Shown piece by piece: positions 2,189 to 41,074 of a stretch of 64,000 bases of DNA. A program made the translations under genes and the position numbers. The stretch lies in NCBI RefSeq assembly GCF_019285775.1, contig NZ_CP079105.1, forward strand, positions 3,100,001 through 3,164,000, written 5' to 3'. The stretch is from Skermania piniformis. Lineage in GTDB: Bacteria > Actinomycetota > Actinomycetes > Mycobacteriales > Mycobacteriaceae. The notes below the pieces were generated by a model, which saw only the letters and a list, made by a program, of their open reading frames with translations, was not told the DNA's origin and searched no databases. Each line of letters opens with the position of its first letter. The first letter of the stretch is position 1.

Positions 2189-3067
2189 TTGCGTTCCTCG
2201 ATCCGCGTCGCCGTCGCCGCTGTTGCGCTACCCCTTGCTCTTGCAGCGTGTTCCAGCAGTGACGACTCGTCCAGTTCCTCGACGTCCAGCACCGCCGGTG
2301 CGAGCACGACGACATCTTCGGCATCTTCGGCGCAGCTCGACACGGCCGCTGCCGCCTACAAGACCTACGTCACCGGACAGACCGCGCAGCTGGTGCCGGC
2401 GGTGACCGCCTTCGCCGCAGCGGTGAAGGCCGGCGATGTCGACGCCGCCAAGGCGCAGTACCCCACCTCGCGCACGTTCTACGAGTCGATCGAGCCGGTG
2501 GCGGAAACCTTCCCCGATGATCTCGACCCGCGAATCGATCTCCGCGAGGCCGATCTGGAGCCGGGCGCAAAGTGGACCGGGTTCCATCGGTTGGAGAAAG
2601 ACCTCTGGGCCCAGGGCCTACAACCGGACTCGGGCGCGATCGCCGATCAACTGGTGGCTGACGTCACCGAGCTGGATCAGCGGGTGAAGGCCCCGGACTT
2701 CACGTTCGACCCGGCCAAGACCGCCGGTGGCGCGGCCGAGTTGCTCGAAGAGGTCGCCCAATCCAAGATCACCGGCGAGGAGGACATTTTCTCACACACC
2801 GATCTCTGGGACTTCCGGGCGAACGTGGACGGTTCCCGGGCCGCGGTCGCCACCGTCCGTCCGATCCTGGATGAGCGGAATGCCGAGCTGGGCAAGCAGA
2901 TCGACAAGCAGTTCGGCAACGTGGACCGAGAGCTGGATCAGTATCGCTCGGGCGACGGCTGGGTGTCCTACGACACGGTGACCGAACCGCAGCGCCAAGC
3001 GCTGTCCCAGCGGCTCGACGCGTTGCTGGCTCAGGTCAGCCAGGTGCAGGGTGTCGTCGGCGGCTGA
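2189..3067 (+). CDS. efeO: EfeO-type iron-uptake lipoprotein (imelysin / M75 domain)
   Basis: Extracytoplasmic component of EfeUOB-type iron uptake, thought to bind iron and pass it towards the permease. The EfeO_M75 pattern is clear: AQLVPAVTAFAAAVKAGD, AKAQYPTSRTFYESIEPVAE and GFHRLEKDLW, then EEDIFSHTDLWDFRANVDGS. The chosen start is TTG at 2189, which gives MRSSIRVAVAAVALPLALAAC: an ideal lipoprotein signal with a Cys after LAA. It has GGGAGG 4 nt upstream. GTG codons at 2174 and 2156 are possible, but 2156 lies inside the iron box. About 292 residues. It overlaps efeB by 17 nt, so the two are co-transcribed. No EfeU permease gene is adjacent. Confidence 0.88.
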   Translation: MRSSIRVAVAAVALPLALAACSSSDDSSSSSTSSTAGASTTTSSASSAQLDTAAAAYKTYVTGQTAQLVPAVTAFAAAVKAGDVDAAKAQYPTSRTFYESIEPVAETFPDDLDPRIDLREADLEPGAKWTGFHRLEKDLWAQGLQPDSGAIADQLVADVTELDQRVKAPDFTFDPAKTAGGAAELLEEVAQSKITGEEDIFSHTDLWDFRANVDGSRAAVATVRPILDERNAELGKQIDKQFGNVDRELDQYRSGDGWVSYDTVTEPQRQALSQRLDALLAQVSQVQGVVGG

Positions 3068-4385
3068 CCCGGTCGACACTGGGGGTGGCCCCGGTGCAGC
3101 GTCGTCCGACGAATCGACGTCGACCACCGAACCAGCCCGCGCCGGTATTTCCCGGCGCGGGCTGTTCGGCGCCTTCGGCGCCGGCGTCGCACTGGCCGGT
3201 GCCGGTGCAGTCGCCGGCTACGCGACCGCAGGGCGTACCGACGCCGCCGACTCCGATGTCGTGCCGTTTCGCGGGCCGCATCAGAGCGGCATCGTCACCG
3301 CGGTACAAGACCGCATGCACTTCGCCGCGTTCGACGTCGTCACCGATTCCCGAAGCGCGTTGGTCGCCCTGCTGGCGGAGTGGACGATCGTCGCCGAACG
3401 GCTGACGCGGGGAGCCGAGGCCTATCCCGACGGCGCAGTCGACGGCAAGCTGCTCGCGCCACCCAGCGATACCGGCGAAGCGCTCGGCCTCCCCGCCGGC
3501 CGGCTCACCTTGACCATCGGATTCGGACCGTCGCTGTTCGGCACGGCCGCCGCCGACCGTTTCGGTATCGCCCATCGACGCCCCCGGGCGCTCGCCGACA
3601 TACCCCATTTTCCCAACGACAAGCTGGACCCGGCGCGCAGCGGCGGCGACATCGCCATCCAAGCCTGCGCCGACGATCCGCAGGTCGCCGTGCACGCCGT
3701 GCGCAACCTGGCCCGGATCGGCGTCGGCACGGTGGCGGTCCGGTGGACCCAGCTGGGTTTCGGTCGTTCCTCGTCCACCTCACGAAGCCAGACGACGCCG
3801 CGGAATCTGATGGGCTTCAAGGACGGCACGAACAATCTCGACGTGACCGACGAGTCGGCCTTGACCGAGCACGTCTGGGTCGCCCCCGGCGACGATCAAC
3901 CGTGGCTGGCCGGCGGGAGCTATCTGGTGGCCCGACGGATTCGGATGCTGATCGAGGGTTGGGATCGCGCCACCCTCGCCGAACAGGAGCGAGTGTTCGG
4001 CCGCACCAAGGGCAGCGGGGCGCCGATCGGCCGCCCGGCCGAATTCGACTCGGTCGACCTGGCTGCCACCGGGCCGGACGGGCCGCTGATCGACCCGAAC
4101 GCGCACATCCGACTGGCGTCGCACGAGTCACTCGGCGGGATCCGAATCCTGCGCCGAGGCTACAACTTCACCGACGGAACCGACGGTTTCGGACATCTCG
4201 ACGCGGGGCTGTTCTTCATCGCGTTCTGCCGCGATCCACAGCGCCAGTTCGTTCCGATGCAGCGCGCGCTGGGTCGGTCCGATGCACTCAACGAGTACAT
4301 CCAACATGTGGCTTCGGCCCAGTTCGTCGTCCCGCCCGGGCTGCTCCCCGGCGAGCATTGGGGCACCCGCCTCTTCACCGACTGA
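3051..4385 (+). CDS. efeB: EfeB-type deferrochelatase / DyP peroxidase, Tat-exported
   Basis: Heme-dependent dye-decolourising-type peroxidase of the EfeUOB system, 444 residues, acting outside the membrane in Fe oxidation or release from heme. Seen: a twin-arginine signal ISRRGLFGAFGAGVALAGAG (about residues 33-52), the DyP signature GFKDGTNNLD (about 260-269) with the distal Asp, and C-terminal LRRGYNFTDG and GLFFIAFCRDPQRQFVPMQ, typical of EfeB. The start is a GTG at 3051 inside the end of efeO. The Tat signal implies folding with heme before export. Confidence 0.92.
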   Translation: MSSAADPVDTGGGPGAASSDESTSTTEPARAGISRRGLFGAFGAGVALAGAGAVAGYATAGRTDAADSDVVPFRGPHQSGIVTAVQDRMHFAAFDVVTDSRSALVALLAEWTIVAERLTRGAEAYPDGAVDGKLLAPPSDTGEALGLPAGRLTLTIGFGPSLFGTAAADRFGIAHRRPRALADIPHFPNDKLDPARSGGDIAIQACADDPQVAVHAVRNLARIGVGTVAVRWTQLGFGRSSSTSRSQTTPRNLMGFKDGTNNLDVTDESALTEHVWVAPGDDQPWLAGGSYLVARRIRMLIEGWDRATLAEQERVFGRTKGSGAPIGRPAEFDSVDLAATGPDGPLIDPNAHIRLASHESLGGIRILRRGYNFTDGTDGFGHLDAGLFFIAFCRDPQRQFVPMQRALGRSDALNEYIQHVASAQFVVPPGLLPGEHWGTRLFTD

Positions 4386-4466
4386 GTCGGCCCGTCCACC
4401 TGCCGAATCCCGGCTTCTCCAGGTGAGAAAAACAAACTCTATGTTCAGTAACTGTCGATTTTCGAG

Positions 4467-28605: not shown

Positions 28606-28676
28606 TCCGCCGTAGTGTAATGGCAGCACCTCTGATTTTGGTTCAGATAGTTCAGGTTCGAGTCCTGGCGGCGGAG
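28606..28676 (+). tRNA. tRNA-Gln, anticodon UUG
   Basis: A 71-nt cloverleaf: acceptor TCCGCCG/CGGCGGA, D-arm GTGT...GCAC, anticodon stem TCTGA/TCAGA with loop TTTTGGT (anticodon TTG, decoding CAA), T-arm TCAGG-TTCGAGT-CCTGG with one T-G pair, discriminator G. CCA is not encoded. It is plus-strand, upstream of glmU. Confidence 0.93.
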
Positions 28677-38042: not shown

Positions 38043-39254
38043 ATGCCCGCCGCTGCGTCCCGAACCGGCACCCCGCCACCCGGCGAACTCGACCTCGATC
38101 GGGTCCGCCGCGACACCCCGGGAGCCGCCGACCAGGTCTTCCTGGACAGTGCCGGCTCCAGCCTGCCACCGTCCCCGGTCCTGGAAACGGTCATCGCACA
38201 CCTGCGACGGGAGGCTCGGGTAGGTGGGTATCGCGCGGCAAACGAACGGGCGGCCGATCTCACCGCGATACCGGAGACCATCGGAAAGCTGATCAACGCG
38301 CCCGCCGATGCGATCGCGCTGAGCGACAGCGCGAGCCGCGCCTGGACCGACTTCGGTTACGCGGTGCCGTTGACCGCCGGCGACCGACTGCTGTTCTCCA
38401 CCAGCGAGTACGCAAGCAACGCGATCGCCCTGTTGCATCGAGCGAAGTCGAGCGGAGCGAGCGTGGAGCCGATTCCGGCCGACGCCACCGGCCGGATCGA
38501 TCTCGACGCGCTGAACCGAATGCTCGACGAGCGGGTCCGGCTGATCTCGGTGGTTCATGCACCGACCAACGGCGGCCTGATCAATCCGGTTCGCGAGGTT
38601 GCCGATCTGGCGCACCAGGTCGGCGCCCTGGTGCTGCTGGATGCTTGCCAGACGACCGGTCAATTGCCGCTCGACGTTGCCGCACTCGACGTGGATGCGT
38701 TGTCCGCGACCGGTCGTAAGTGGTTGCGCGGGCCGCGTGGCACCGGCTTTCTCTACGTTCGCCCGGAGCTGATCGCCGAGCTCGAGCCGGCCGGCCTCGA
38801 CCTGCACAGCGCGACCTGGACCGACGATGCCGACTACACCCTCGCGGCCGGAGCCCGCCGATTCGAGTTCTGGGAATGCGATGTGGCCGCTCGGCTGGGG
38901 CTCGGTGTGGCTGTGCAGTACCTGCTCGATCTCGGCCCGGATCTGGTCTACCGAGCGATCGCCGCGCTGGCCGCCCGATTGCGTGCCGGCCTCGCCGAGC
39001 TGCCCCGGGTACAGCTGCGCGACCTCGGGGTGGAGCAGAGCGGCATCGTCTCGTTCACCGTCACCGGGGTAGATCCCGACCAGGTCCGTGATCGGCTGCG
39101 CGACGCGCAGATCACCGTCACGGTCAGTCGGGCCTCGTCGACCCGGCTCGACATGCGCCGCCGCGGCCTGCCCGCGGTGGTTCGGGCATCACCGCACTGT
39201 TTCGTCACCTCGGACGATGTCGACCGGTTCTGCCGAACCGTTGCGAGGATGTAG
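38043..39254 (+). CDS. Aminotransferase class V-fold PLP enzyme, EgtE-like candidate
   Basis: A 403-residue fold-type I PLP enzyme. Seen: VFLDSAGSSLPPSPVLETV, REARVGGYRAANERA, GDRLLFSTSEYASNAIALL, LISVVHAPTNGGLINPVREV, VLLDACQTTGQLPLDV (Asp contact) and the PLP lysine in SATGRKWLRGPRGTGFLYV. EgtE, the C-S lyase that completes ergothioneine, has the same order of motifs (LDSA, VGGY, RKW-GPRG). As the last missing egt step lies close to egtABCD, EgtE is a reasonable candidate, but this class also includes cysteine desulfurase-like and isopenicillin epimerase-like enzymes. Confidence 0.65.
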   Translation: MPAAASRTGTPPPGELDLDRVRRDTPGAADQVFLDSAGSSLPPSPVLETVIAHLRREARVGGYRAANERAADLTAIPETIGKLINAPADAIALSDSASRAWTDFGYAVPLTAGDRLLFSTSEYASNAIALLHRAKSSGASVEPIPADATGRIDLDALNRMLDERVRLISVVHAPTNGGLINPVREVADLAHQVGALVLLDACQTTGQLPLDVAALDVDALSATGRKWLRGPRGTGFLYVRPELIAELEPAGLDLHSATWTDDADYTLAAGARRFEFWECDVAARLGLGVAVQYLLDLGPDLVYRAIAALAARLRAGLAELPRVQLRDLGVEQSGIVSFTVTGVDPDQVRDRLRDAQITVTVSRASSTRLDMRRRGLPAVVRASPHCFVTSDDVDRFCRTVARM

Positions 39255-39306
39255 CCGAAACTTCTACCGTGACCGCAGTCAGAACCTCGTAGAAAGGGAC
39301 AAGGCC

Positions 39307-39417
39307 ATGGATATCGCCGGTCTCGCCGGCTTTCTCGGCGACACACTCTGGTTTCTCGGCGCGATGCTGCCGCGCACGCCGGAGCTACTAGGCAGCTATT
39401 TCGCGCAGTTCTTCTGA
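39307..39417 (+). CDS. 36-residue hydrophobic peptide, first of a tandem paralogous pair
   Basis: Short ORF encoding 36 residues, MDIAGLAGFLGDTLWFLG then AMLPRTPELLGSYFAQFF. AAAGGGA sits 7 nt before the ATG, a good ribosome-binding site. It is 13/36 identical without gaps to the peptide at 39505, with the shared core GAMLPR-[TS]-x-[ED]-LLGS-[YW]-[FL]. The sequence can form an amphipathic helix with a Pro-Arg kink. No signal sequence or Cys. Function unknown; small membrane-active or channel peptides such as the 45-57-residue PorA/PorH of Corynebacterium are a loose structural comparison, not an identification. Confidence 0.72.
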   Translation: MDIAGLAGFLGDTLWFLGAMLPRTPELLGSYFAQFF

Positions 39418-39504
39418 TCCATATCCACGGTCGCCGGCCACAACCGGCTAACGTGAGCGCGCAACGACGGCGATCCGCGCCGTCCGCTACCGAACAGGAC
39501 ATCG

Positions 39505-39615
39505 ATGGGCCCGAATCAGATCATGCAACTGCTTACCGACTTCGGTGCCATGGTCGGCGCCATGCTGCCGCGGTCCGGCGACCTGCTCGGCTCCTGGCTG
39601 TCGCTGCTGCACTGA
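39505..39615 (+). CDS. 36-residue hydrophobic peptide, second of a tandem paralogous pair
   Basis: 36 residues, MGPNQIMQLLTDFGAMVG then AMLPRSGDLLGSWLSLLH. AGGA lies 5 nt before the ATG. Same length as the 39307 peptide, with the GAMLPR and LLGS blocks in the same positions, so the ORFs are paralogs and not chance. It starts 87 bp after the first peptide's stop, and both precede rplY. Immediately after the stop there are short imperfect repeats around CTGCTGCACTGA, perhaps from local duplication. Function unknown. Confidence 0.72.
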   Translation: MGPNQIMQLLTDFGAMVGAMLPRSGDLLGSWLSLLH

Positions 39616-39709
39616 CACTGTCGCTGCGGCCCTGACGCTGGCACTGCTGCACTGAGGCCGTCGACGCGGCTGCCGAACCCCGGTCGGTGCCCGATGTCGA
39701 CGGATCAGG

Positions 39710-39715
39710 CATAAT
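39710..39715 (+). promoter_or_regulatory. Candidate -10 box (CATAAT) upstream of rplY
   Basis: CATAAT stands in an otherwise GC-rich gap about 150 nt before the rplY start. It would give a long leader. No convincing -35 is seen. Confidence 0.3.
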
Positions 39716-39866
39716 CGGCGGCGTTGTCTCGGCGAGGGCTCCGTCCGAATGGACGATGACCGTTATCGACGCGGCGCGGCTGTCGACGGGCTCCGGCTCA
39801 TCTCTCCCGGCTGTGCTCGTCGCCGGGGCGCAGTGCAACCCACCGACAGAGAAGAGAGTCGCGCCG

Positions 39867-40493
39867 ATGCCCGAGGTCAATCGTCTGACCGCTCAGGTCC
39901 GCACCGAGTTCGGTAAGGGAGCGGCTCGCCGTGCCCGCCGGGCCGGGAGCGTGCCGGCGGTGCTGTACGGCCACCAGTCCGATCCTCGGCACCTCGCGCT
40001 GAATGCTCAGGCGTTCGCCCGCGTGTTGCGGGAAAACGGCACCAACGCGGTGCTGACCCTCGACATCGAGGGAAGCGAGCAGCTGGCACTGACCAAGGCG
40101 GTCGTGGTCCATCCCATCCGCCGCTACATCGAGCACGCCGACCTACTGGTGATCAAGCGCGGTGAGAAGGTCGTCGTCGACGTCCCGGTCACGGTGGCCG
40201 GGGAGCCCGGGCCGGATGCGATCGTCGCCCAGGATCAGACCACCGTCTCGATCGAAGCCGACGCACTGCGCATCCCCGAAGCGATCGAGGTGTCCGTCGA
40301 GGGCGCCGAAGTCGGCACGCAGATTCTTGCCGGCGATCTGACCCTGCCGGCCGGCGCGACACTCCAGACCGACCCGGAGGCGTTGATCGTCAACATCATT
40401 GCGCCGCAAACCGACCCCGATCCAGCCGAGGAAAGCGGCGATGCCGAGGCGGCCGCCGAGTCGGACGAGTCCGGTTCGGACGAGTCGGCCTGA
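39867..40493 (+). CDS. rplY: 50S ribosomal protein L25 (TL5/CTC long form)
   Basis: A 208-residue L25/CTC family protein that binds 5S rRNA. N-terminal L25 domain: [71 protein letters not shown]-terminal CTC beta domain, then an acidic tail (about residues 182-208) rich in Glu, Asp, Ser and Ala. The start at ATG 39867 has AGAGAAGAGA upstream; an in-frame upstream extension to 39687 is not needed. Followed by pth as in mycobacteria. Confidence 0.95.
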
Positions 40494-41074
40494 GCACGAT
40501 CGGACCTGCGCTCGTGGTCGGGCTCGGCAACCCCGGACCCGGCTACGAGCGCACCCGGCACAACGTCGGTTTCCTGGTGGTCGATCGGCTGGCCGAGCGG
40601 CTCGGCGAACGTTTCGGTGCGGACCGTCGCTCCGGTGCCGACCTGGTGCAGACCCGGCTGGCCGACCGGCGGGTATTGCTGGCCAAGCCGCGTAGCTACA
40701 TGAACACCTCGGGCCGCGCGGTCGGATTGCTCAGCCGATACTTCGCCGTGCCGGTCGGCGACGTCGTGGTGATACACGATGACCTGGATCTGGATGTCGG
40801 CGCCATCCGGCTCAAACAGGGCGGCGGCGAAGGCGGACACAACGGCCTGCGGTCGGTATCCGCCGCGCTGTCCGGCCGGGACTACCTCCGCGTCCGGGTC
40901 GGGATCGGGCGGCCGCCGGGCCGCAAGGATCCGGCGGCGTTCGTGCTGGAGCCGTTCAGCGCCGCCGAACGCAAGGAGCTGCCGATCACCGTGGAAGAGG
41001 CGGCCGACGCGGTGGAATTGCTGCTGCGCACCGATCTCGAAACAGCGCAGAACCAGGTACACCGCCGACCTTGA
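40490..41074 (+). CDS. pth: Peptidyl-tRNA hydrolase
   Basis: Releases peptides from stalled peptidyl-tRNA. Seen: [20 protein letters not shown] with the catalytic His, [35 protein letters not shown] (catalytic Asp), and [11 protein letters not shown]. Starting at CTG 40490 gives 194 residues, [16 protein letters not shown], and a CTGA overlap with the rplY stop. The first ATG/GTG/TTG-type start in frame is GTG 40514, which would begin MVGLGNPG and cut into the first beta strand. I prefer 40490 because homologs carry a few residues before LVVGL; the choice is uncertain. Confidence 0.9.

What the first reader, a model, noticed from the sequence alone, without database searches (positions are those of the whole stretch)
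39307..39615. Tandem pair of 36-residue paralogous peptides with a conserved GAMLPR...LLGS core
Two consecutive 37-codon ORFs upstream of rplY encode peptides of identical length. Ungapped they agree at 13 of 36 positions, including GAMLPR and LLGS blocks at the same positions, and each has its own ribosome-binding site. Such agreement at two spots cannot come from chance GC-rich coding. The sequences are hydrophobic and amphipathic with a Pro-Arg break and no Cys. They might be small membrane-active peptides, channel-forming peptides (the PorA/PorH pair of Corynebacterium is a loose precedent) or holin/toxin-type peptides. I know of no described family with this core.
Basis: partly seen in the sequence, partly recalled or inferred. 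Interest (0 to 1): 0.82.

Follow-up and report, generated by a model that had tools for sequence, protein, structure and literature searches.

The report
Tandem amphipathic helix peptides near rplY
Two neighbouring tiny genes make related 36-residue peptides that form one-faced helices suited to membranes; a few other mycolic-acid bacteria carry relatives at another gene, the peptides resemble the tiny pore proteins of Corynebacterium in kind, and what they do is still untested.

Summary
ORF1 (39307-39417) and ORF2 (39505-39615) share 13 of 36 residues in register (permutation P about 7e-6), each behind a Shine-Dalgarno-like site. They belong to a small, fast-diverging family: peptides of 34, 42 and 39 aa sit 38-43 bp before the same orthologous AAA-ATPase gene in three other genera (G026; G077 = Antrihabitans cavernicola; G044). 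A profile finds the family in 3 of 401 family genomes, a lower bound, since it missed G044. Shared residues often use different codons, so the protein is conserved. All five have a helical moment peaking at 100 degrees over the whole chain; AlphaFold2 gives one helix, residues 3-35. No accepted match in Pfam, NCBIfam, PHROGs or PADLOC. Best reading (0.35): signal-less peptides that insert into the mycomembrane and assemble with polar stripes inward, working like corynebacterial PorA/PorH. Membership in PorH/PorA was tested and not met, though one PorH of eight outscored all, or nearly all, decoys. Translation, location and function are inference; toxin-like or regulatory membrane peptides remain live rivals.

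The parts
39307..39417 (+). ORF1, 36-aa amphipathic peptide MDIAGLAGFLGDTLWFLGAMLPRTPELLGSYFAQFF
   Evidence: ORF; paralogy P about 7e-6; whole-chain moment at 100 degrees P 0.0068; AF2 helix 3-35
39505..39615 (+). ORF2, 36-aa paralogue MGPNQIMQLLTDFGAMVGAMLPRSGDLLGSWLSLLH
   Evidence: ORF; moment P 0.0002; AF2 helix 3-35
39292..39299 (+). SD-like GAAAGGGA of ORF1
   Evidence: read from sequence
39496..39499 (+). SD-like AGGA of ORF2
   Evidence: read from sequence
39241..39270 (+). possible promoter of ORF1: TTGCGA, 18 nt, TACCGT
   Evidence: by eye (for coordinates); the strict sigma-70 scan found none, so weak
38043..39254 (+). upstream neighbour: class-V aminotransferase / cysteine-desulfurase-like gene
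   Evidence: Pfam PF00266 E 5e-56; best NCBIfam model EgtE at 190.5 bits, below its cut-off of 400
39867..40493 (+). downstream neighbour rplY (ribosomal protein bL25)
   Evidence: Pfam and NCBIfam over cut-off

Best explanation
ORF1 and ORF2 encode a pair of signal-less, Cys-free, slightly acidic amphipathic alpha-helical peptides that insert into a membrane of this mycolic-acid bacterium, most likely the outer mycomembrane. Each is one helix of about 33 residues with a broad hydrophobic face and a narrow polar stripe that carries the conserved D12, R23, E/D26 and S30. Several helices of the two paralogues would assemble with the stripes inward and line a small water-filled channel, as proposed for PorA/PorH of Corynebacterium; S30, among small residues, is a possible acylation site. 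Computed here: the genes, their paralogy, protein-level conservation, helix and polar stripe. Inferred: translation, export, the membrane, oligomerisation, channel, acylation.
For: Family reality and protein-level selection. Whole-chain helical moment peaks at 100 degrees in all five peptides, P 0.0068, 0.0002, 0.0012, 0.0006, 0.0046; polar residues gather on one face, P 0.016, 0.009, 0.017, 0.059, 0.040. AF2 single helix 3-35, pLDDT 87.5 and 86.8. Size, net charge (-2, -1, 0, -1, -4), lack of a signal peptide (by inspection) and tandem layout match PorA 45 aa, PorH 57 aa, ProtX 38 aa, PorACj 40 aa, PorACur 37 aa (passages). Known PorH/PorA-like peptides show moments of similar size. A four-peptide model scores one PorH-like peptide above all 18,729 decoys and above all 2000 class-preserving shuffles (family maximum P 0.002).
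Against: No expression, location or activity data. PorH and PorA models do not recognise the peptides (reverse P 0.14 and 0.48), although 8 of 8 PorH and 9 of 9 PorA recognise each other above all decoys; with the fifth peptide added the PorH score drops to 10.3 bits with 2 of 18,729 decoys as high. The 30-residue moments of ORF1 and G026 are not exceptional: 10.7% and 9.1% of hydrophobic protein segments reach them. PorA is modelled as two helices joined by a loop (PMC11927696, passages), unlike the single helix here. The G026, G077 and G044 loci show a single peptide, not a pair. Channels described from Rhodococcus, Nocardia, Tsukamurella and Dietzia are MspA-type (PMC9233653, passages), so a need for helical pores is not evident. 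G026 has no charged residue, so a plain transmembrane helix is possible there.
Confidence: 0.35

Rival explanations
1. Type-I-toxin-like inner-membrane peptides: small helices that depolarise the producer's own membrane when released from repression (TisB/Ldr style, precedent recalled), kept as diverging tandem copies.
For: Small hydrophobic amphipathic helices, tandem paralogues, sporadic distribution and more than one genomic place.
Against: Net charge is zero or negative; no antisense promoter or terminator was seen by the strict scan around the ORFs (a weak test in this kind of genome); no Rfam match in the window except a tRNA; no plasmid or phage relative of ORF1.
Confidence: 0.2
2. Small regulatory or structural membrane peptides: an interfacial helix that binds and tunes a membrane or AAA/VWA-type complex.
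For: Relatives sit 38-43 bp upstream of the same AAA gene in three genera.
Against: In the window genome the pair is elsewhere and none of the 9 small frames upstream of its own AAA gene scores; the pair neighbours rplY and an aminotransferase gene with no evident link.
Confidence: 0.22
3. Secreted surfactant or leaderless-bacteriocin-like peptides acting on other cells.
For: Amphipathic helices without a leader.
Against: Not cationic; the flanking genes 38043-41074 are an aminotransferase, rplY and pth, not an exporter or immunity gene.
Confidence: 0.12
4. Chance: spurious ORFs whose similarity arises from GC-rich hydrophobic composition or from a common motif.
For: Very short; the per-genome E-values of the first two outside hits (0.003 and 0.0075) over 301 genomes are no better than chance; the core weakly resembles a stretch of AMP-dependent synthetase/carrier-domain proteins (E 0.5-1).
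Against: Three full-length small ORFs at the same distance before the same orthologous gene in three genera, one of them found through position; ORF2, not used, matches G077 (0 of 5000 shuffles) and G026 (P 0.0018); codon changes under identical residues; 100-degree moment in all five.
Confidence: 0.03

Closest known systems
PorA/PorH two-component channel of Corynebacterium (also PorACj, PorACur)
   Same: 34-69 aa peptides without signal sequence, tandem genes with SD sites, amphipathic helix, mostly acidic, mycolic-acid host
   Different: No recognisable membership by profile in the PorH/PorA direction; core PR-x-x-E absent from the PorH/PorA sequences seen; locus beside PPK2/groEL2 not shared; PorA is modelled as two helices; the AAA-linked relatives are single
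ProtX of C. glutamicum (cg2875)
   Same: 38 residues, no signal sequence, envelope peptide, mycoloylated on Ser37 (PMC5310785, section 14 and passages)
   Different: Its sequence was not obtained here, so no comparison was made; locus recalled as near purC/purB, nothing convincing found there in 23 genomes
MspA-family porins (PF09203)
   Same: Cell-wall channels described for Rhodococcus and other non-Corynebacterium genera (PMC9233653, passages)
   Different: A separate protein superfamily, larger and not peptide-sized; size and fold otherwise recalled
Type I toxin membrane peptides such as TisB
   Same: Small amphipathic or hydrophobic helices (recalled)
   Different: No antitoxin RNA evidence here; charge differs

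Membership tests
PorH/PorA family | Profile match to PorH or PorA models | tested here: not met
   PorH model: ORF1 3.0 bits reached by 254 of 20,000 shuffles, ORF2 2.3 bits by 403; hhalign probability 6.0% for PorH and 0.7% for PorA; leave-one-out controls recover 8 of 8 PorH and 9 of 9 PorA
PorH/PorA family | Reverse match: model of these peptides finds PorH/PorA | tested here: inconclusive
   One PorH-like (G002) 13.4 bits, 0 of 18,729 decoys as high; one PorA-like 8.4 bits, 8 decoys as high; the other 7 PorH and 8 PorA not remarkable. Five-peptide model: 10.3 bits with 2 decoys, 8.9 with 3, 6.5 with 8, 5.8 with 14
PorH/PorA family | Gene place between groEL2 and PPK2 | tested here: not met
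   Window pair lies before rplY; the own-genome PPK2 locus with a GroEL-like neighbour (L145) has no such peptide
PorH/PorA family | Short, signal-less amphipathic helix | tested here: met
   no signal peptide by inspection only
PorH/PorA family | O-mycoloylated Ser and channel activity | not testable with these tools
   needs mass spectrometry and bilayers
Type I toxin-antitoxin | Antisense or structured RNA partner | tested here: inconclusive
   No Rfam family except a tRNA at 28606-28676; no promoter by strict scan; organism-specific promoters not covered
Phage holin or other phage protein | Relatives among phage proteins or genomes | tested here: not met
   PHROGs none for ORF1, ORF2, G026; G077 has phrog_33789 at E 0.15; phage tblastn of ORF1 none; viral contigs none confirmed of 115 stretches, a weak negative

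The most novel reading that the evidence does not exclude
A two-component, signal-less alpha-helical mycomembrane pore of the PorA/PorH type in the Rhodococcus-side branch of the mycolic-acid bacteria, where the channels described so far are MspA-type, encoded by an undescribed fast-evolving family of 34-42-aa peptides that gene finders and profile libraries miss.
Probability: 0.22. Interest if true: 0.68.

Novelty: new variant of a known kind. Interest (0 to 1): 0.45.

Why it matters
In the papers seen here, signal-less helical pore peptides of the outer mycomembrane are described from Corynebacterium only, and how they cross the plasma membrane is unknown (PMC12632848, passages). A second peptide family with the same physical plan but a different sequence, in other genera, would let the shared rules (polar stripe, acylated Ser, pairing) be told apart from sequence history. 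If they prove to be toxins or regulators instead, they are still an unannotated gene family, found with certainty only by combining sequence with gene position.

Tried and rejected
Known families: Pfam and PHROGs for ORF1, ORF2, G026 and G077; NCBIfam and PADLOC for ORF1 and ORF2; PDB sequences; plasmids and phages with ORF1 only. Nothing accepted (ORF1 has DUF6774 at E 1.4 and G077 phrog_33789 at E 0.15, both rejected). These negatives say little: three corynebacterial PorH/PorA-like peptides have no accepted Pfam match either. The collection scans of genome contigs (138 stretches) and viral contigs (115 stretches) confirmed none, but the first also missed A. cavernicola, which is in that collection (L177), so both are weak.

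Weak genome hits: 113 of 301 genomes at E<=10 and 183 of 301 at E<=3. Thirteen of the loci were translated and none looked like a small-peptide gene; seven small-frame hits were read, none convincing, L259 the nearest (17.7 bits). The order-wide search had 9 of 397 genomes, the own one and 8 partial matches in frames of 486-2559 codons, not examined further. In one search a fourth genome, G254, matched over 14 residues in a 433-codon frame and was dropped.

A mistake found and mended: loci from the genome search are not turned to the match strand, so looked at the wrong side of 19 of 30, 12 of 30 and 15 of 23 loci. repeat them oriented. That repeat brought in G044 and leaves the rplY result unchanged (own genome only, 30 loci of 147 genomes with rplY).

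Other ideas dropped: a two-helix hairpin around PR (AF2 gives one helix); ProtX relatives beside purC (place recalled), nothing convincing in 23 loci; dN/dS, since pS 0.54-0.72 is near saturation against pN 0.37-0.51, only a weak sign of purifying selection. Searches were script failures (option clash), repeated correctly.

Full report
What is there. The window is base 3,100,001-3,164,000 of a 4.23-Mb single-contig genome. Its name is not given and its genus holds no second genome. Its AAA protein (303 residues compared) is nearest, by score, to Rhodococcus sp. CH91, 88% identical, among 87 loci compared, so a mycolic-acid envelope is inferred from relatives. Between a class-V aminotransferase gene (38043-39254) and rplY (39867-40493) lie two 36-codon ORFs 87 bp apart, each behind an SD-like site. 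Three overlapping or opposite-strand frames have no accepted Pfam match.

More than chance. Identity is 13/36 in register, P about 7e-6. Six of 11 identical non-M/W residues are written with different codons.

A family. Their per-genome E-values (0.003, 0.0075) alone are no better than chance over 301 genomes. What convinces is the rest. Both end about 40 bp before the same orthologous AAA gene. ORF2, not used, matches both (0 of 5000 shuffles; P 0.0018). A model of ORF1+ORF2 puts both above all 18,729 decoys; a model of G026+G077 puts ORF1 above all and ORF2 below one. The decoys are 738 hydrophobic small ORFs and 17,991 hydrophobic 36-residue segments from held loci. With shuffles that keep each position's residue class, leave-one-out P is <0.0005, 0.041, 0.0015 and 0.0005 for ORF1, ORF2, G026, G077.

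With loci oriented correctly, G044, of a third genus, has a 39-aa ORF (MQETPLDFLSGVVWLTGEMFVRIPEYFWAFVDTIVAIVQ) behind AGGAG at -162 to -43 of the AAA start, against -166 to -38 in G077 and -145 to -41 in G026. It scores 12.3 bits with the four-peptide model (1 of 18,729 decoys as high; class-preserving P 0.003), and Z 6.3, 7.1 and 9.8 against ORF1, G026 and G077, but nothing against ORF2 (P 0.69). G019, same genus as G044, has a fragment cut by its contig end that could be the tail of another (ELLGKLPEFAAAIVAVVQGLLAG); not counted.

Distribution. By profile, 3 of 401 family genomes; this is a lower bound, as G044 was searched and not called. Three other genomes of the A. cavernicola genus have no match. 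Among 110 AAA loci (30 of 124 genomes with the gene, plus 80 named loci, some the same genome; 108 with 600 bp upstream), only G026, G077 (twice) and G044 show it. At rplY it is the own genome only, of 30 loci. The window genome has none of the family before its AAA gene. Two places, patchy presence: loss, movement or transfer, undecided.

Anatomy. The helical moment, scanned from 80 to 120 degrees, peaks at 100 degrees over the whole chain in all five, shuffle P 0.0068, 0.0002, 0.0012, 0.0006 and 0.0046. Polar residues gather on one face, P 0.016, 0.009, 0.017, 0.059 and 0.040; D12, R23, E/D26 and S30 of the window pair lie within about 80 degrees of its centre. Against hydrophobic protein segments the best 30-residue moment is high for G077 and ORF2 (0.5% and 2.0% reach it), ordinary for ORF1 and G026 (10.7%, 9.1%). 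AlphaFold2 on three-sequence alignments gives one helix 3-35, pLDDT 87.5 and 86.8, pTM 0.44 and 0.40: mild support for so short a peptide. In ORF1 and ORF2 D12 and R23 leave no uncharged run over 10 residues mid-chain, so a classical transmembrane span is unlikely; G026 has no charge at all and could be one. G026 and G077 have weaker SD-like sites than the others.

Comparison with PorA/PorH. From PPK2 loci of 18 genomes of genus g3 (taken to be Corynebacterium from size and locus) I chose 8 PorH-like peptides from 8 genomes and 9 PorA-like from 8 by size, charge and position; four small peptides of G178 were left out of both sets and several genomes gave none under my filter. The window peptides are not members: PorH and PorA models do not find them, hhalign gives 6.0% and 0.7%, while members find each other above all decoys. 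In the other direction one PorH scores 13.4 bits, above all decoys and all 2000 class-preserving shuffles (family maximum P 0.002; PorA family sum P 0.031); reverse P is 0.14 and 0.48. With G044 added the PorH falls to 10.3 bits and 2 decoys pass it. In 28 pairwise tests, ORF2 against one PorA-like (L146) stood out, Z 6.1. A remote common origin is possible and not shown; a shared helix plan by convergence would explain it.

Literature, all read as passages unless said. PorA and PorH are signal-less and co-encoded, and PorH needs PorA for surface assembly; AlphaFold2, not experiment, proposes five of each with a hydrophilic inside (PMC12632848, a preprint: abstract, section 5, passages). PorA Ser15 is modelled in a loop between two helices (PMC11927696). 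ProtX has 38 residues, no signal sequence, and is mycoloylated (PMC5310785, section 14 and passages). PorACj has 40 aa and PorACur 37 (PMC3792995, PMC5944148). Mycoloylation is on Ser, less often Thr, among small residues, with no strict motif (PMC11066868). Channels of Rhodococcus, Tsukamurella and Dietzia are MspA-type (PMC9233653). Six paper searches showed no description of this family in their listings; the library holds open-licence papers only.

Verdict. A real, undescribed, patchy family of amphipathic-helix micropeptides in mycolic-acid bacteria. A PorA/PorH-like membrane pore is the single most likely mechanism, well under even odds.

Noticed in passing
L167 (genome G178, genus g3) 2997-4441: Four small PorH/PorA-like peptides of 28-63 aa in a row beside PPK2, more than the usual pair.
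   Followed up: no
L145 (window's own genome, contig position about 522,563): A GroEL-like frame (motif only) directly before PPK2, the corynebacterial porA/porH place, with no hydrophobic small ORF in the gap.
   Followed up: partly
window 39265-39270 and L007 1442-1447: TACCGT, a possible -10 box, stands upstream of both ORF1 and the A. cavernicola peptide.
   Followed up: no
L006 1615-1627 and L007 1648-1660: CTCGTAGCGTGAA is shared just before the AAA start; near versions occur in congeners without the peptide, so it is probably the AAA gene's own promoter.
   Followed up: partly
L069 1-75 (genome G019): Contig starts inside an open frame ending ELLGKLPEFAAAIVAVVQGLLAG before the AAA gene, perhaps the tail of another family member.
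   Followed up: partly
L259 310-417 (genome G006): 35-aa ORF with ILQFLGHFVWM, the nearest non-member in held loci (17.7 bits with the five-peptide model).
   Followed up: no
L193 2712-2840 and L200 2736-2864 (Williamsia): A conserved very hydrophobic 42-aa frame upstream of the AAA gene, unrelated to the peptides.
   Followed up: no
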